From NCBI GenBank assembly GCA_024195585.1, contig SWBL01000028.1, forward strand, positions 1 to 64,000: a stretch of 64,000 nt of DNA. Reading direction: 5' to 3'. The notes under the pieces are model-generated. The model made no database searches, was not told the DNA's origin, and was given only the letters and a program-made list of their open reading frames with translations. Position 1 is the first letter of the stretch; each line of letters begins with the position of its first letter. This stretch comes from Aureobasidium sp. EXF-3400. Lineage: Eukaryota > Ascomycota > Dothideomycetes > Dothideales > Saccotheciaceae. Both the position numbers and the translations under genes were made by a program. Positions 14,691-24,444 of the stretch are shown here, piece after piece.

Positions 14691-16205
14691 ATGACGACTT
14701 TGGCATCTCAACCACAACCCTCGGCCTTCCGTCCGACCAACATACAGGATGGCCAGTCTGTCGCCCTGTTCCGCTCTGCTGGTGACGCTGCCCCTCCCCA
14801 GTTGAAGAGGAGCTTTGGCTCGTTGGACAGTGTAATGGACGACCACTCGTAAGTCGCTACTATCTTCGAGTCTACTCGTGCATACTCGTAAGCAAAGGCA
14901 GATCGACTGACCTTGCCTTCTCAGGTCACCCGTATCAGCAGCATCTCCAGAGGAAGCACCACCCGGCAAGATGGCCATTCCCCGAGCTGCGAAGCGACCT
15001 TGCGACGACTCAACCGTCTCCAATGGCCCACTCAGCAGAGAAATTACCCTCAAGCCTCGACCGAAGCCCGGCCGCAAACCTATGGCCGACCAAAACGACT
15101 CTTCGGACAAGCGGAAGACGCAGAATAGAATTGCACAACGCCATTTCCGTGACCGTCGTGCTCAAAAGTGTAACGATCTTGAGATTGAGAACACACAGTT
15201 GAAGGAGACTCATCGTGTTGAGATGTCTGCTTTGCGGGAACAGCTCATGCAACGCGACGCCCATATTGCAGCACTCTTGGCTGAGAAGGTTGATGCCGTT
15301 GCTGAGAGGGCTCGTGTCGACTCAGAGTGTGGCCAACTTAGAGAACGTAATGTGGTGCTGCAGAGAGAACTTGGTATGTTTTATATCCTTCTCGCTCTCA
15401 CATTGCATGAGAACTGTACTAATCATCCAACTCAGATGCCGCCAAGCTTCATCATGCCAATGCTCATGCTCCTCATCCCCAGCGCCCTGCTATTGCATCA
15501 AACTTTGTCTCATCAGTTCATCAAATACTCACTCCTCCATCGGACAACGATCCTCACGACGAGTACGAAGTAGACTTCACAAACATCTACGCCACACGTA
15601 AACCATCAGCATTCACATCCGGACTCGGCACAGACGAACACTGCGGTTTCTGCAGCGACGTCGAAAACTGCATCTGTCGCCAACAGGAGGAACTCAACAA
15701 CAAGAGTTTACCCAGCCTTCCTCCTATCGATTCATCCCGTGCTGTCACTCAAATAAAACCACACTCTGATGTCACCACCCCCAGTTTCCTTGAAGCTCGT
15801 ACTGAAGCTTCAGGACCGGGTACTTGTGACATGTGTCTCGCCGACCCCGAGAAAGCCCGTCAATGCAAAGAACTCGCCGAAGTAGCCTTCAAAGAACAAG
15901 AAGCCGCTGCGTCCACCCAGGACAACTCCTCTAGAGACACAGGCACCGTCACCCTCCGCCGCCTCAAACAACTCGACCCACCAAAACACACCGAGCGAAC
16001 TTCCTGCTCTGACTTTTTCCAACAAGCTCAGCAGAGAAATGTTAGACTCAGACGAGATGACTATCAACAGATTAAACATGTGTATCGTGTTGATAGCAGG
16101 TCTGAGCATTCGCCTTATATGGAAATGGATACGCAGGATGCTGCTCATGCTTTGGCTGCGCTATCCAGACAGGACACTAGGTCTGGGATGGATCGCCAAG
16201 CTTAA
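14691..16205 (+). CDS. HapX-like bZIP iron-responsive regulator
   Basis: Nuclear transcription factor that joins the CCAAT-binding complex to reprogramme iron use (known for HapX). Exons 14691-14848, 14925-15373 and 15436-16205; 458 aa. Residues 90-105 contain a CBC-interaction motif ending in PRPKPGRKP. A bZIP basic region, KRKTQNRIAQRHFRDRRA, follows at about 115-132, then a leucine/coiled-coil stretch to about 200. Two cysteine-rich motifs follow: CGFC-x5-C-x-C near 272 and GTC-x2-C-x2-DP-x5-C near 331-346. Both are typical of the iron-sensing regions of HapX. The canonical Trp before the PRPKPGRKP core is replaced (REITLK), so a paralogue is possible. An in-frame Met at 14550 could give 47 extra residues. 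Both introns have good donors and acceptors. Confidence 0.85.
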
Positions 16206-16952: not shown

Positions 16953-19900
16953 TTATGATCGCTTCTGCACCAATACCATTCCGCCCTCTCCCTGTTCGTA
17001 GTCTTCTTCTTCTTCTTCTTCTACCTCAGTTTGGGCATATTCAGTGGCTTGACGAAGCTGATTGAAAAAGCTTTGTTCGTTGCTGAAAGTACTGGGCTGA
17101 TTGTTGTCCTGGCCGAGATGGCTGTAATTTTCGCGATCGTCAGGTTCGGCACTGTCGTTGAGTTCGTCAGGGCTACCGCCGGCATCGCCAAACAACATCT
17201 CGTCCGGGACAGGGCGTCTCTCTATCGATGGAGGTCTACGAGACGGCGATCTCGGGTAGAGAGTCGACTTCAGAAGACTGGTCTTCTGCATCGGCGCTGG
17301 TGGCGGCTTCACGGGCGAGCTCTGGACCATCCTAGAGTCTGCATACGCCGCTGGAGGTTTCAGAGGCGAACTCCTCTGTACGGCTGGAGGTCCTGGACTG
17401 GCAGAATCGTTGTCTTGACTCGCCAACCTGAGAAGACGCGCCTTTTCCTTCTTCCTTTGCTTTTTGGCGGAGCTCTGCTCTTCCTCAAGTTTGATCAACT
17501 TGTCACGTATTTCTGCTCGCTTCTTCGATGGATCAAAATCGGCAAAGTCGTTGTCGCGATCAAGCTCGCGAGACATTACCTTGCGAACAAACTCTGCAGG
17601 ATCGCGGACGAAAGCTTCCATGTATCCGATCAAGTAGACACCGCAGTCACAAAAATTCGTTTGCTGAGGTAGACCACGAGCTGTTAGTCCTTTGAGTGCA
17701 GTATACTCAAATTCTAGACCTCGTTTGTCGCGACCTTCGTGAACGACGTATTGCTTCAGATTCTTGATCTCCTGAGGGTGAGTGCCGCCCAATGAATCAA
17801 GGAGGATAAGAGCAGGTCTAGGGATAGTCAGCATATTTTCTTTGTACTGAGTGTGAGACGAGGCAACATACGTGTTAGGGTCCGTCTTTGGCAATGGAGG
17901 CGCCTGCTTTTTACCCTTGCGCGAAATTGACTTCAACTTGGCAAGAGGAGGGAATTCCTTTTCTTGCTCTTGAGAGCCATCGAGAGAAATACGTTTCACA
18001 CCCTGTGATAGACCATCGTCCTTGGCTTCCTGAGGCGACTCTGGGATCTCAATCTCGGTTTGCACTGTTGTCTGAGATTGTGTGGGCTCTTCGATGGTTG
18101 GTTGTAGTTCAGCTTTGGGTCCTTCTTCTTCATCGTCTAGGCCATCCAGGTTCAGTTTTCGTTCAAGTTTGTCGAGATTGCAAATGATGACCAAGAACCA
18201 GTGATATTGGGTGTTGATTGGGACCGCAACGTACGGATGACTGAACAAATCAATGTTCCTGGTCCAGCGCTTCACGCCGTCGTAGTTGAACCCTTTCTTT
18301 TTCGAAGGAAGACTGGTGAGAGTCTCATAGAAGAACGAATTGAATATATGCGCCTTGCCCTTCAACTCTGGATTGTTCTCCTGCATCTCTCGAAGACAGA
18401 ACAAGATAATGTTGTCGTTGAGAAGCTCGCCATCGTCCAGTCGTGCAATATCTTCAGCATCAATAGTAGTTCGACTCGGCCCCACAGCGGGATATACCAA
18501 GGGGGCATCCCACTTGGGAATACCATGTTTTACAGTCCATCGCTCAATCTCTGGCTCTGCGGGTCGCGCGGCTTTGCCACCGTCTTTACTCTGAAGCCTT
18601 CCACTGGTTCTCACAGGTGTAGCTTGTTCGATTCGAGGTTTAGGTGGCGGCAAAGAATGATCTTGCGCTGCTTTGGCGACAGGCTGGTTGGTGTATTCGG
18701 TTTTCATCTGGCGAGTCAATCTTGGCGTGGGTGCTTGGCTGGTAGCCTCAGGAAGCGGAAATCCGCTCTGTGCCGCTAAGGTTCGCTCTCGGTTGGTCGG
18801 CTCACTTCGACGATGGATCATGGCGTCTAACTCAGGGTTGGTTGACGCGGCTGCTGGGATGAAGTACGACTCGGAGGCCTGGCGTACATGCGTGAACTTG
18901 ACTCTGCAACAGTGTCAGCTCTGATAGTCAACTCGGCTGTTACTACTTACGGTTCCAAATTCTTGACCATCGCTTTTGAATTCATGTCATCGACAACGTC
19001 CAAGAAGGTATCGCGATCGTCTGACGTATTGAACTCAAACAAGATGCGACCACTCGATATACCGCCCTTGGCTCCTTGCAGTATGACTACCGTCGAGCTT
19101 TCCAGATCGCAAAACACATCTTTGGCGTGTTTGCTGCTAACCTGAATAATCTCGCCTTTATGACAAAGCATATCGCCGTTCTTGGTAAATTGCATGGCCT
19201 TGTCTGCCCAAGAGTAGATGAGATGAAGGTTTTTCATGCTGCCAGCCATCATACGAAGCGACGTTAAGGAAGCAATAAGTGGTTCTCGGATTTCCGGCTT
19301 CTTGGGCTTCGTGAGCTTCGTGAGCGTCTTGGGCTTCGTGAAATGTGTAGAAGTGATAGCATTCGGAGACGGGGACCGGGGCGTTACAGCCTTGTTGGTC
19401 TTCCGGGCCGACGATCGAATCGCGGGATCGCGTGACAGTTCGTCTTCGCTCAAGTCTTCCACGACTTGTGGCGGTTGCATGATTCGGGAAGTGTTTGAGG
19501 TTGACTGCATCCTGTTTATGAGTTTTGACTCAGCCTGGCGTGTTTCTGGAACCAGATCAGGTTCCCCATGATCTCTTTTGAACATGGCCGCTAGAGGAGG
19601 CGAGCGTGGCGTCCACTCACTGGCTGTGTGATGTGTGGGACGAGGCACGTTGTGCTGCTCAACAAGAATCTGAACATCATCATCGTCGTCGACAGAAACG
19701 GGATCAATGGCAGCGCCGTGTTGACGAGGGGAGCTGTGCTGTGTCGGTCCAGATTTGGGCTTACGACCCTTTTTCTTGCCGTTGTTAAGTATTCCGTGTG
19801 CATCACGGGCTTCATCGTGGCCAAAGGGATTGGACCTCTGACTGCGAGTCTCTTGGCTGTTTATGCTGATGGCGCTGATGCTCGGCTGTCGTTCAAGCTT

Positions 19901-20957
19901 GGTTGAAGAACGACCTTGCAGGCCACGGTTGAAGAATTCATCGTCTGGCAAGTCGTCAAACTCTTGCGGATATACATGACTTGTCTTTTGTCGTTTGATA
20001 GGACTACTCGAGACATTCTGTCCACGAGAGGTTGTCGTGGCCAGAGCGTTCACCCCAGGGCCTAGTCGGTTCAAGGTGTTTATTGGCTTGGGGCCGCCTG
20101 GAGGCTTTCTCTTCATGTCTATCGTAGAACCCCACTCGTCTTGTGGTACGGATATGGGGGTAGAGCCTTGCGTCGAGCTGGAGAAGATTAGTCAAGGCGA
20201 GTATCAAACACAGTTGGATGTGCATACGGGTACGATCCTGGAAACAATCTCTTCTCGTCGGAACTGGGCAATGTGCGTCGTTGTTTTACTCGCTGATGGC
20301 CTCGGACACTGCGACGATATGTTCAGATCATGTTTCGACAAAGGGTCAGATGTGACCTACTCGGTGGGCGATGTGCTTCGCTTTTTGACGGAACTTTGCT
20401 GCGGGTGTAATTGTCGAGCACTGGACTCTTCTTCTATGTGGCTGAGGCAAGGTCAGACGATGTACGGCGACAGTTTCTCGGGTGTGGTCTACTCTTTCGG
20501 GGATGCAATTCGTCTCTTGCGGCTGCTCGACAGTGTATTTTCTCTTTTGCTTCGCGGCTTTTCCTCTGGGCTGGGACGACTCGGTCAGATTGGAACGCGG
20601 ACGGTAAGGTGGCTGTTGCCTACTGTCTCGGAGATGCGATTGGTGTTGAGTGTGTCGCGGATCGCGTGCGAAGACGTTTGGATCGAGAGAGGTCTTCTGG
20701 ACTGTGGGAAATTTGTCAGGTTGTACGAGTCGACAGATTTCCAGGTGGGGCGTACCTCGTCGGCGATGTGCGGTGGTTCGATTGTGCTCTGATGTCCTCA
20801 CTCGGCTGCTCATGGTCCTGTTCGACGTTCGACTTAGTCTTGGTGGCATAGCTTCACTGCCTTGGTAGTGTCTTACCTTGGAGTCGGAATCGTTTCCTAT
20901 GAGTGTGTCGAAGGTCCGCTTGACGCCTCCCACGAAACTATTGACAAGGCCGGCCAT
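16953..20957 (-). CDS. Ulp2-type SUMO protease with a duplicated-exon N-terminus
   Basis: Cysteine protease (family C48) that removes SUMO chains, probably nuclear. Nine exons: 20957-20877, 20817-20756, 20701-20624, 20570-20493, 20441-20361, 20308-20228, 20177-18951, 18903-17872 and 17817-16953; 1194 aa. Catalytic residues are His in YHWFLVII (about 797), Asp in ILLDSLGG (about 914) and Cys in FCDCGVY (about 965). An acidic insert of about 100 residues between His and Asp is typical of the Ulp2/SENP6-7 branch. The tail is disordered, Pro/Ser-rich and ends with an acidic run. Exons 3-6 (78, 78, 81 and 81 nt, all phase 2-2) encode related basic repeats ending near SP. Intron 8 (54 nt) is a stop-free multiple of three. 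Starting instead at the Met at 20116 would still give a full protease; the extra exons join it in frame, which supports the longer model. Confidence 0.85.
20228..20701 (-). repeat. Tandemly duplicated exon-intron units in the SUMO protease gene
   Basis: Four successive units, each an exon of 78, 78, 81 or 81 nt plus an intron of 50-53 nt. All exons are phase 2 at both ends. The first two encode peptides identical at 12 of 25 positions by hand alignment (shared PE, RSKR and IASP). The second and fourth share R-x-K, TL and SS at the same offsets. Introns 3-5 begin with a similar GTAG(G/A)(C/T) donor, and all four have a CTGAC or CTAAT-type branch point. The preceding 62 nt exon ends similarly (TSP). 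Confidence 0.7.
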
Positions 20958-22386
20958 GGATCATATCGGACGAGGGAGAACATGTGCACACATCTGTTGC
21001 AAGGAACACACGTCTGGAAGGCGCTTTGTTGGTGACTGCCCGCACGCGCAAACTTTTGGACTCGTCGTTAATGTTTCTATTGTTTCCCGACGCCGCTGTC
21101 TCGCTTCCCGTTTGCCATCGACCTTGGACCTGTGCCTGCCCTTCTCGGTTCAAGTACGGTCTGGATAGGTATATTGCAGCTTCTCCCTAACCTCATATGA
21201 CTATTGACATCATCTGCTGCCGCGTCTGTTCTTTGGTATCGCTCGATATCTCGGACCGTTGCTATCCGCATGCGGAAGTCATTGACATGCTGGTCATGTG
21301 CCCGACTTGATCAGTAATACCATGACTCGTGACGACCCACCAAGACGAAGGTCAGACTTCAACAACACCGATCCTTGACTTCTAGCTATATGCTTGCATA
21401 CATCCCTTCATATTTGAGGAATCCTTCGACGAAAGATTGACACGCATTCACGTTGAGTAGCTGATAGTTATGTCTGTACTCCGTTTCCGACTCAGCCTTC
21501 TTTCTGGCACGCCACAGGCACTTCCACCAGGGTTCCAAACATCTGGACAAAGCCACCAGCACTTTATTACACCTTGCCACTGGTCGAAGATCGGATCGTA
21601 GATTGAATATCAAGTCTAACAGACTACTCTAAAACAGAGGCAGGATCTGAAAAGCTCATCTCCATCGCATGTAAGAGTATAGGATGGGAACGCATGAGGG
21701 CTGCCTGTTGTCAACACTTACGCGTCTCAGACCCTCGCATCTTAGCGTTGACCACAGAATGAAACGCAGGCAAACATCCATCGGACAATCATTTTTGGCC
21801 ATTTGGAACCATGAGCGCCAATCACCCATTTCCCGGTCCTCTTATAGAAAGCGATGGCTGAGCGACCGCACTATGGAGCGGCTGTCCAAGAAGGCTGTAC
21901 ATGACCAATGCAGCCTTGCCTGACCTCTGCCGAGAATGTCGAAACGGGAGCCATCTGGGTGTTCTCTATCGCGCCACATGTGTACATACGCTATACACAG
22001 AAATAAGCACTACTGCACAGACGTGGAGCTGCTGCAAGCATGGATTGCAGTTCATCATCTCCAAAGATCCCTACCTGAACGATCCAACATTCTCCAGATA
22101 TGCTCGATTGGATGTTTCATCTAAGTATGTGAAGCATACAGAGCTCTGTGAGCCCCTGAACAATATTCTAAGAGGACACCACCACCATGATGAGGCCCGA
22201 AGGTCTCGATAGCGTCTTCATCTACTGGTCCATATGCAGCATGCCGCAAAGCTGCAAGCCACTCCAAGGCTTGTTGGCTGCTTCCCGTCTGGACGATCCC
22301 ATCACTACTGCAGCGGTCTTAAAAGGCAGAAGTGTCCCACTGCCACAAAACCTACGATTCGCTATGTTATTTTCTCGTTGTTAAGC
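20958..22386. other. Intergenic, divergent promoters
   Basis: 1.4 kb between the SUMO-protease start (-) and the DUF3176 start (+). It holds only short overlapping frames. A segment at 21684-21790 resembles sequence on the far side of the DUF3176 gene. Confidence 0.5.
21684..21782 (+). repeat. Diverged direct repeat, upstream copy
   Basis: Shares with 24579-24648 the block CTGTTGTCAACACT then ACGCGTCTCA (21705-21729, one mismatch in 25), a flanking GATGGGAAC and a later AACGCA-GCAAAC stretch, in the same order with indels. Both copies keep the frame LLSTLTRL. It flanks the DUF3176 gene. Confidence 0.5.
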
Positions 22387-24444
22387 ATGGCCGACTTCGA
22401 GATGGATTCCCTTGTCCCAAACCATCGACCTGGGTTGCAGTCACGATCCTCTTCTCTTACAGCATCTTACTCCAGGCAGCTACAGGATATTGACACTCAC
22501 TATCATGATTCGGCAAGTTCAATCGCTCTTCTCAGTCCCGAGCCTACCGATATCGAAGAAAAGGTCCGGGACCGTATGTTAACAACAGAGATTGCTCCAG
22601 CCAAGGATTTGGACCCGAACCCAAGATCCGCTGCCACAGATAGTGCGAGCTCATCATTTCAGTATAGAGACGCTCGCGCCTGGTGGTCTGACTGGTGGCT
22701 CCCTGAGATACTGGCACTCGTTTTCAGTGTCGTGTGCCTCGGTTCTATTGTTCTTGTGCTCGAAAGAGTAGATGGCAGACCGTTATCCGAGTGGCATTCT
22801 TTCGTCCAAGGCAGCGTGCCTGGCGGGCATATTATGTCGATGGCACCCAACTCGGTTATCTCGTTTCTCTCAACCATCGCCAAATCCTGTCTTGGTTTCA
22901 CCGCAACTGCGTGTATCAGTCAGGTGAAATGGCTTCATATGCAGAAGGAGAGACGCAGCTTAACGAGTCTGCAAATTTTTGATGATGCAAGCCGTGGTCC
23001 CCTCGGTGCTATCGGTCTATTTCTCACAGCAGAGACGGCTTCGTCTGTGGCTGCAGTGGGCGCGCTAATTACACTTGCGGCGCTCGTGATAGACCCATTC
23101 ACTCAGTTGGTTATTACCTACCCGTTACAGCAAGTATCCTCAGAGAATGGGATAGCCCTCATCTATACTTCTTCGATATATGACTCGGGAGCGACAATAC
23201 AACGTAAGTCTTCCACACGTCTCGCACTTGATCATCCAATCTTGTTTGGCTAATCAGTTGTAGTGACGGCCGATGATATATCCGAGACTTACCTTAACGT
23301 TCCGATGCTAGGAGCCATCTATAATGGCATATACGATCTCGACTTGCACGACACACCCATCTGCTCTACAGGCAATTGCAAATGGGAGGGATGGGTTCCG
23401 TCGCTTGCAGTGTGCTCGAAGTGCACCGACGTCACTGACAAGGTCAACAAAAGTTGTGGTCACCTCTCTCGTGATTCCATGACATACGGTTCCAGCGTAG
23501 ATCCTACCAATAAGACGTGCAATCTAACTACACTTTCTGGCCTGGAGGTGTCCACTTTATTCCATTCCAATACAAGCACCATGGCCAACAACACTGTTGG
23601 AGTTCTCGATTACAACGACGGTATGACGCTCCTCTGGATGGCATCGGCAATGGCACGAAACGATCAGATGAACCCAGCGAGAGTCTCGCTCACAGCACCA
23701 AGCAATGGGTCATCTTACATAGTCTCTGACTGCACTCTCCAATGGTGTTACCAGTACGACAACGACGTTCAGATCGTCAATGGATCCATTACAAACCGTG
23801 ACACATGGTTGATAGCTCATCGCAATGCCACCAATAGCCTTCCTGCCATTGACCCCATGGCCAATCCTGTATGGAATGCCAGCTTTGCGCACGATCCATT
23901 ACCGAATACCTCCAACATCGAGGAACCAGTCCCGAATTTCAACATCTCCATCAACCACGCAGACACTCTCTGTATCAGAGACTACCTGGCCAGCATATTG
24001 GGGAAGGCATGGGCGGGTCAATCTTTCGAAGCTCCTTGGATGGATGTGACTCTTTATGCCTCTCAGAATGTATCTCTGATGATGGATCATCTGGCTGCAA
24101 GTATGACCAAACACATCCGCGCCAGCAGAAATGCTACGAGTGTTCCCGGACAGGCGTTGACGACTGTCACATACGTCAAGGTGCACTGGGCCTGGCTATC
24201 GCTCTTGATCGCCACGACTGGCATGTCGATAATATTCCTCTCGATGGTCGTCATCCTAAGTCATATCAGCGCCACGTTCCTCTGGAAGTCAAACAGCTTA
24301 GCGCTCCTCTTCCATGGACTGGAAGGCTGGTCATCGACAGAGCTTGATGCCACATCAGTTGCTACAATGACAAAAATGGCCAGGACCATGGATGGTCAGT
24401 TGAAGCGGGACTCCGATGGACTTCTCAAGATTGTTAGGAGTTAG
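22387..24444 (+). CDS. DUF3176-family membrane protein
   Basis: Multi-pass membrane protein of unknown function, common and often multicopy in Pezizomycotina. Exons 22387-23203 and 23264-24444 (intron 60 nt, GTAAGT donor, TAG acceptor); 665 aa. A polar Ser-rich cytosolic N-terminus of about 95 residues leads to WWLPEILALVF and a first membrane helix. Two more hydrophobic segments precede about residue 260. A large extracytoplasmic domain follows, with many N-x-S/T sequons and cysteines (ICSTGNCKWEGW is a family hallmark). A C-terminal helix (WAWLSLLIATTGMSIIF) and a short cytosolic tail end the protein. The start is the Met after an in-frame stretch beginning at 22234 that looks non-coding. 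Diverged repeats flank the gene. Confidence 0.85.

What the first reader, a model, noticed from the sequence alone, without database searches (positions are those of the whole stretch)
20228..20817. Tandemly duplicated symmetric exons build the N-terminus of a SUMO protease
On the minus strand, five short exons follow the first exon of the Ulp2-type gene. Exons 3-6 measure 78, 78, 81 and 81 nt and all begin and end in phase 2, so any can be lost or gained without a frameshift. Their peptides are repeats: exon 3 and exon 4 match at 12 of 25 residues (PE, RSKR and IASP in register). Exon 6 matches exon 4 at R-x-K, TL and SS at the same offsets, and exon 5 ends in the same basic-then-SP block. 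Introns 2-6 are 50-54 nt with similar first bases. This looks like repeated duplication of an exon plus its intron in a fungal gene, an unusual arrangement that would allow exon skipping to vary the number of basic SP modules. The repeat peptides may be SUMO- or chromatin-contact segments (speculation).
Basis: partly seen in the sequence, partly recalled or inferred. Interest (0 to 1): 0.8.

Follow-up and report, generated by a model that had tools for sequence, protein, structure and literature searches.

The report
Tandemly repeated exons in fungal SUMO protease
The start of a fungal SUMO-protease gene is built from several short exons that look like repeated copies of one exon together with its intron; the copying appears real but is a known kind of gene evolution, and nothing yet shows that the exons are spliced in or out at will.

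Summary
On the minus strand of a diploid Aureobasidium genome, a Ulp2/SENP7-like SUMO protease begins with six short exons. Exons 3-6 are 78, 78, 81 and 81 nt; introns 2-6 are 54, 53, 51, 52 and 50 nt, all phase 2. The gene's diverged second copy (homeolog) keeps five of the six N-terminal introns. Tandem duplication is supported at DNA level: four of the five best internal matches lie at offsets 131, 132, 263 and 395 nt (one, two, three units) and run across exon end, donor site and intron start. Exons 3 and 4 match in register in both gene copies and in orthologues. Introns 2-5 resemble one another.

Corrections: exon 6 looks like a chimera; its first half is a repeat copy, its end (SSDEKRLFPGSYP) resembles an N-terminal motif of distant fungal Ulp2 proteins. 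Unit-end SP motifs are mostly not conserved. The homeolog lacks intron 5 plus eight codons, in frame, and shows the repeat more weakly. No SUMO-interaction motif was noticed by eye in exons 2-6. Exon skipping is untested; fungi generally show little of it. Best reading: constitutively spliced tandem exon duplications that lengthen a basic, probably nuclear-targeting tail.

The parts
20877..20957 (-). exon 1 (81 nt), start codon, MAGLVNSFVGGVKRTFDTLIGNDSDSK
   Evidence: similar start in the 8 rows; dN/dS 0.19 against the homeolog
20756..20817 (-). exon 2 (62 nt); its last about 16 nt belong to the repeat unit
20702..20755 (-). intron 2 (54 nt, GTACGC..CTGAC..CACAG), repeat-family intron, 83% identical to the homeolog
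20624..20701 (-). exon 3 (78 nt, phase 2-2), SPEDLSRSKRLRTRSATHSTPIASPR
20571..20623 (-). intron 3 (53 nt), weakest member of the intron family
20493..20570 (-). exon 4 (78 nt, phase 2-2), HPEEKPRSKRENTLSSSRKRRIASPK
20442..20492 (-). intron 4 (51 nt), donor GTAGAC; alignment score 46 against intron 2 and 28 against its positional orthologue
20361..20441 (-). exon 5 (81 nt, phase 2-2), DHIEEESSARQLHPQQSSVKKRSTSPT
20309..20360 (-). intron 5 (52 nt); absent from the homeolog together with 24 coding nt
20228..20308 (-). exon 6 (81 nt), probable chimera: first half a repeat copy, end resembles an N-terminal motif of distant fungal Ulp2 proteins (SSDEKRLFPGSYP)
20178..20227 (-). intron 6 (50 nt), phase 2, not significantly like introns 2-5 once splice signals are cut off
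20730..20771 (-). repeat block copy 1 (exon 2 end + intron 2 start); 29 of 42 identical to copy 4
   Evidence: offset 395
20611..20644 (-). repeat block copy 2 (exon 3 end + intron 3 start); 26 of 34 identical to copy 3
   Evidence: offset 131
20478..20519 (-). repeat block copy 3 (exon 4 end + intron 4 start); 28 of 42 identical to copy 4
   Evidence: offset 132
20335..20389 (-). repeat block copy 4 (exon 5 end + intron 5 start)
   Evidence: offsets 395, 132 and 100
20265..20289 (-). repeat block copy 5, inside exon 6, not followed by a donor in this gene model; 20 of 25 identical to copy 4
   Evidence: offset 100
18951..20177 (-). exon 7 of the same gene (1227 nt)
17872..18903 (-). exon 8, first part of the Peptidase_C48 domain
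16953..17817 (-). exon 9, rest of the protease domain and C-terminus, after a 54-nt intron at 17871-17818

Best explanation
A unit of about 131-133 nt (one 78-81 nt phase-2 exon plus one 51-54 nt intron) was tandemly duplicated several times near the start of a Ulp2-type SUMO-protease gene. The exon 3/exon 4 duplication is older than the split between the two Aureobasidium lineages that meet in this diploid genome, since both gene copies have both exons. Unit number then changed by lineage: the homeolog lacks intron 5 and eight codons, in frame. Because the units share one phase, gains and losses leave the protease frame intact. The exons are probably all spliced in constitutively and encode a disordered-looking, basic tail that helps carry the enzyme into the nucleus or onto chromatin. 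Shown here: an open gene model with matching structure in the homeolog, the repeat structure, the same joins in several database gene models, the in-frame difference. Inferred: constitutive inclusion, tail function, order and direction of events.
For: The top five self-match offsets in 640 nt are 131, 395, 100, 263 and 132, each rank above the same rank in all of 150 dinucleotide shuffles; the blocks cross exon-intron borders. Exons 3/4: register 0 scores 29.8 over 7 + 7 sequences, the next best of 25 registers 4.3; 0 of 500 column shuffles reached it, 1 of 500 without the window row. Introns 2-5: mean pair score 36.5 against at most 28.3 in 20,000 random quadruples of 200 intron-like segments; composition-preserving shuffles of their cores P 0.0001. 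Last 14 nt of exons 2-5: mean 9.0 identities against at most 7.3 in 50,000 draws. The homeolog keeps introns 1-4 and 6 in the same phases and an open frame. Of 6 database rows aligned, 5 join exons 1-2-3-4 and 3 of these (P0002, P0003, P0005) also join 4 to 5; two keep intron 4 and one lacks exon 4.
Against: No transcripts. Outside exons 3-4 exon similarity is weak or absent. Of the six pairs among introns 2-5, two (2-3 and 3-5) are not significant as cores, and an outside pair (1-4) has P 0.022. In the homeolog the intron cores alone give P 0.077, and only one of its five best self-match offsets, 131 nt, fits the period (ranks 1-3 P 0.02, 0.007, 0.04; ranks 4-5 not significant). A tree of seven border blocks has supports 40, 75, 76 and 98 and leaves the order of duplications unresolved. 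Internal repeats of equal raw strength occur in 8 of 397 other genome segments. Coding constraint is modest: dN/dS 0.53 in exons 2-4 (bootstrap 0.29-0.93) and 0.63 in exons 2-6. Public models P0001 and P0008 lack exons 1-6 and exons 3-6 respectively.
Confidence: 0.72

Rival explanations
1. The exons are not copies; a disordered basic tail selected for nuclear-localisation clusters converged on similar RxKR and ASP peptides, and equal sizes and phase are chance.
For: Only 3 of 10 window exon pairs reach P<0.05 at protein level. One serine and one arginine shared by exons 3 and 4 are encoded by codons two changes apart (TCC/AGC, CGT/AGA). Introns 6 and 7 are phase 2 without being clear repeat members.
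Against: Similarity continues through the donor into the introns, where peptide convergence cannot act; four of the five best offsets are multiples of one period; DNA z is 4.6-4.7 for exons 3-4 in both gene copies.
Confidence: 0.12
2. The introns were inserted as related mobile introns (introner-like elements) into one long ancestral exon, and their common target sequence gives the similar exon ends.
For: Introns 2-5 are alike as a set, and such elements are known in Dothideomycetes (PMC4457414, passages).
Against: A genome search with the 871-nt interval returned only the gene and its homeolog, and the first 25 nt of intron 2 with up to 3 mismatches found only itself; [quoted passage not shown] Exons 3 and 4 are alike over most of their length.
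Confidence: 0.05
3. The duplicated cassettes are alternatively spliced, so that skipping tunes the number of basic modules in the protease tail.
For: Exons 3-6 are symmetric. Intron 4 has a donor off the usual consensus in both gene copies (GTAGAC, GTACCT; the consensus is recalled). A public model of the homeolog type goes from exon 2 past the fused exon 5/6 (P0008), a model labelled A. pullulans lacks exon 4 (P0007), four keep intron 4 (P0004, P0006, P0009, P0013).
Against: Those are predictions whose transcript support I could not see. Fungi show comparatively low exon-skipping levels (PMC6142364, passages). Introns of about 52 nt favour splice-site pairing across the intron (general knowledge).
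Confidence: 0.11

Closest known systems
Tandem exon duplication (Kondrashov and Koonin 2001, Letunic et al. 2002: recalled, and seen only as references)
   Same: adjacent exons of equal phase and near-equal length with recognisable sequence similarity, intron copied too
   Different: here in a fungus, with exons under 82 nt and introns of 51-54 nt, in a disordered-looking tail, and with no evidence of mutually exclusive use. The Exonize paper reports full-exon duplications in about 4-7% of vertebrate genes and none detected in yeast among 20 genomes (PMC12343006, results section; its table was not shown)
Ulp2 / SENP6-SENP7 SUMO proteases
   Same: Peptidase_C48 domain; best solved relatives by sequence are SENP7 (7r2e, 3eay) and Ulp2 (5lnb)
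   Different: N-terminal extension of repeated short exons; among the N-termini that I read I recognised it only in Aureobasidium
Introner-like elements of Dothideomycetes (PMC4457414, passages)
   Same: several similar short spliceosomal introns
   Different: not found outside this gene and its homeolog, and the exons are duplicated as well
Stwintron-linked exon skipping and exon loss in Aspergillus rtnA (PMC6616335, abstract and outline)
   Same: fungal exon that is skipped, and lost between species
   Different: there through nested introns; here tandem units and an in-frame length difference, with no skipping shown

Membership tests
tandem exon duplication | adjacent exons of equal phase with significant sequence similarity | tested here: met
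   exons 3-4; exons 4-5 weaker
tandem exon duplication | copying at DNA level, introns or borders included | tested here: met
   period of about 131.6 nt across borders; intron similarity; weaker in the homeolog
tandem exon duplication | each copied exon is a complete exon | tested here: inconclusive
   met for exons 3 and 4; exon 5 weak; exon 6 only in its first half
mutually exclusive or cassette exons | alternative inclusion in transcripts | not testable with these tools
   no transcript data; only protein predictions that disagree with one another
Ulp2/SENP6-7 SUMO protease | Peptidase_C48 catalytic domain | tested here: met
   PF02902 E 3.2e-29
Ulp2/SENP6-7 SUMO protease | closer to Ulp2/SENP6-7 than to Ulp1/SENP1 | tested here: met
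   SENP7 and Ulp2 chains rank above SENP5, SENP1, SENP2 and far above Ulp1; no SENP6 chain was listed
Ulp2/SENP6-7 SUMO protease | cleaves SUMO chains | not tested
   needs an assay
[quoted passage not shown]
   none returned by the two genome searches

The most novel reading that the evidence does not exclude
The array is a working, frame-neutral counter: copies are gained, lost and perhaps skipped to set the number of basic segments in the protease tail, and the exon-end/donor/intron-start block is itself kept by selection on RNA (synonymous differences between the gene copies are fewer there than in exons 7-9), acting as a repeated splicing element.
Probability: 0.1. Interest if true: 0.65.

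Novelty: new member of a known kind. Interest (0 to 1): 0.42.

Why it matters
Tandem exon duplication is studied mostly in animals (general knowledge). A multi-copy fungal case, with a different unit count in the second gene copy of the same cell, would let one follow how exon-intron units are gained and lost in a short-intron genome. It also suggests that public gene models of this SUMO protease miss or garble its N-terminus.

Tried and rejected
An antisense reading frame of 270 codons (19980-20792, plus strand) spans exons 2-6 and their introns and is open in the window. It was rejected as a gene because each of the three antisense frames of the homeolog holds 5-10 stops.

Gene conversion in the window lineage was considered because intron 4 scores 46 against intron 2 but 28 against its positional orthologue, and intron 5 scores 49 against homeolog intron 3. 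A tree of the seven border blocks does not support it, so it is left open.

Tandem Repeats Finder finds nothing, as its own description leads one to expect for copies this diverged. Codon-position counts gave no clear coding signal for exons 2-6 (37, 27 and 38 differences at positions 1, 2, 3 over 119 codons); NG86 gives dN/dS 0.53 for exons 2-4 and 0.63 for exons 2-6. Random change of the same number of bases in exons 2-4 would give a stop in 88% of trials and none is present, though the homeolog model was itself chosen to be open. Fourfold sites in exons 2-6 are not significantly slower than in exons 7-9 (9 of 30 against 132 of 289 differ, P 0.12), while codon changes at identical residues are fewer (13 of 61 against 276 of 643, P 0.001), so nucleotide-level constraint is suggestive only.

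The regex for the N-terminal motif was written after seeing the sequences and has no chance control; it matched 17 of 118 proteins within the first 330 residues, 8 of them Aureobasidium. Many models begin elsewhere.

Literature. In the rows listed (10 papers; 1; 15 of 29; 1; 10 of 19) I saw no title or abstract start about tandem exon duplication in a filamentous fungal gene; a Cryptococcus paper (PMC2740785) mentions exon duplication in its text and was not opened. The library lacks most subscription journals. Searches gave nothing that I used on Ulp2 N-termini.

Full report
What was given.

The gene. rebuilds exons at 20957-20877, 20817-20756, 20701-20624, 20570-20493, 20441-20361, 20308-20228, 20177-18951 and 18903-16953; the last is split by a further 54-nt intron at 17871-17818, where the homeolog has a stop. 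Introns 1-8 are 59, 54, 53, 51, 52, 50, 47 and 54 nt. Introns 2-7 are phase 2 and intron 1 is phase 0. The 1194-residue protein has a Peptidase_C48 domain (E 3.2e-29); its best solved relatives by sequence are SENP7 and Ulp2.

Where it comes from. The genome is 53.4 Mb in 717 contigs and holds two diverged copies of the gene. The best database match is a protein of Aureobasidium sp. EXF-12344 (98% over 85%); the second copy reads like the EXF-12298 protein P0008 where I compared them by eye. A population study lists both strains as diploid and possibly of other species than A. subglaciale (PMC9430960, passages). The exact strain is not established.

The second gene copy. G000:C11 carries exons of 93, 62, 78, 78, 138 and 1326 nt, then further exons. 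Introns 1, 2, 3, 4 and 6 are kept in the same phases. Exons 5 and 6 are fused, and intron 5 plus 24 coding nt are missing (76 nt in all): an in-frame unit loss or gain. A. subglaciale models P0025 and P0026 have a stretch of about the window's length there, by eye, which hints that the long form is older; the DNA could not be read.

Are the exons copies? Protein: exon 3 against 4, 12 of 26 identical, 0 of 3000 shuffles; 4 against 5, P 0.001-0.002; 4 against 6, P 0.03-0.04; the other 7 of 10 window pairs are not significant. In the homeolog, 3 against 4 P 0.02-0.05 and 4 against fused 5, P 0.01; the other 4 of 6 are not significant. DNA: exon 3 against 4, z 4.72 and 4.61 in the two gene copies, 0 of 2000 each; three more window pairs have P 0.009-0.04 and 6 of 10 are not significant; the other 2 of 3 homeolog pairs tested are not significant. 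Over 7 exon-3 and 7 exon-4 sequences, register 0 scores 29.8 and the next best of 25 registers 4.3; 0 of 500 column shuffles reached it, 1 of 500 without the window row.

Are the introns copied too? In a 640-nt self-comparison the best ungapped diagonals are at 131, 395, 100, 263 and 132 nt (scores 18, 16, 15, 14, 14); each exceeds the same rank in all of 150 dinucleotide shuffles. Four of these five are one, two or three times about 131.6 nt, and their matches run through exon end, donor and intron start. Introns 2-5 have a mean pair score of 36.5; 20,000 random quadruples of 200 intron-like genome segments reached at most 28.3, and with the splice signals cut off none of 20,000 reached the observed 12.2. 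Single core pairs: 2-4, 2-5, 3-4 and 4-5 have P 0 to 0.025; 2-3 and 3-5 are not significant; of the 15 pairs with introns 1, 6 or 7 only 1-4 has P below 0.05 (0.022). These introns are richer in G+C than most of the background; composition-preserving shuffles of the cores give P 0.0001, but in the homeolog alone P 0.077. The last 14 nt of exons 2-5 share 9.0 on average against at most 7.3 in 50,000 draws; homeolog exons 2-4 share 6.3, P 0.007.

Results against. In the homeolog self-comparison only the best offset (131 nt, 43 of 72 identical, P 0.02) fits the period; ranks 2 and 3 (offsets 50 and 242) have P 0.007 and 0.04, and ranks 4-5 are not significant. Among 397 other 640-nt segments of this genome, 8 have an equal or higher sum of the five best diagonals and 10 a best diagonal of 18 or more. 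I printed four of those 8 and did not work out what they are. So strength alone is about a 2% event; the period and its fit to exon borders carry the argument.

Exon 6. Its first half holds a fifth block copy (20 of 25 identical to the exon 5 end), not followed by a donor in this model. Its end, SSDEKRLFPGSYP, resembles stretches in Talaromyces (SDERRLFPNYGRP), Coniosporium (PEDERRLMGDY) and Hortaea (SEDELRLTGNY); a regex found such stretches in 17 of 118 proteins, 9 of them outside Aureobasidium. So exon 6 is best read as the old exon with a repeat copy at its front.

What the repeats encode. A basic, disordered-looking tail (by eye; no predictor was run). Exon 3 keeps KR-x-R in 7 of 7 sequences used. 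The SP at the aligned unit ends is present in 4 of 4 window units and 0 of 3 homeolog units; both gene copies have an SP across the exon 2/3 join, and P0004 has ASP at the end of exon 3. I noticed no hydrophobic SUMO-interaction motif by eye in exons 2-6; exon 7 has a candidate (VQILV after acidic residues). Selection on exons 2-4 is modest (dN/dS 0.53, bootstrap 0.29-0.93; 0.63 for exons 2-6) against 0.06 in the catalytic domain; synonymous differences in exons 2-6 are fewer (pS 0.37) than in exons 7-9 (0.61-0.64), a possible sign of splicing-related constraint (P 0.001 by one measure, 0.12 by another).

Public models. Eight rows were aligned (window, homeolog and 6 of the database proteins). 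All 8 run exon 1-2-3; 7 carry exon 4 and P0007 lacks it; the 8-codon stretch is in the window only. Of the 6 database rows, P0002, P0003 and P0005 join exon 4 to 5, and P0006 and P0013 keep intron 4, as do P0004 and P0009 outside that alignment. P0001 begins at an internal Met in exon 7, and P0008 goes from exon 2 past the fused exon 5/6. These are predictions, not transcripts.

Verdict. Tandem exon-plus-intron duplication: supported. Variable splicing, SUMO contact and a conserved SP module: not shown. A new member of a known kind; I saw no fungal case in the paper listings, which are partial.

Noticed in passing
window 21031-21090: A 60-nt stretch upstream of the gene is 90% identical between the two gene copies, higher than the exons nearby; it may be a conserved promoter element.
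   Followed up: no
window 19661-19675, minus strand (exon 7): VQILV directly after a run of aspartates looks like a SUMO-interaction motif (recalled pattern); the homeolog has VQIL at the same place.
   Followed up: no
window 19980-20792, plus strand: Antisense reading frame of 270 codons open across exons and introns; not open in the second gene copy.
   Followed up: yes
window 17818-17871, minus strand: A 54-nt intron without in-frame stop inside the protease domain; kept as coding in public model P0001, though the homeolog has a stop there.
   Followed up: partly
G000, contigs C56/C65 and C71/C164: Other Peptidase_C48 genes also appear as pairs with similar scores on different contigs, as expected of a diploid with diverged gene sets; the pairs were not aligned.
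   Followed up: no
window 14911-15573 and 22213-23253, plus strand: Neighbours: a bZIP-like frame (just under the Pfam cut-off) and a DUF3176 protein.
   Followed up: no
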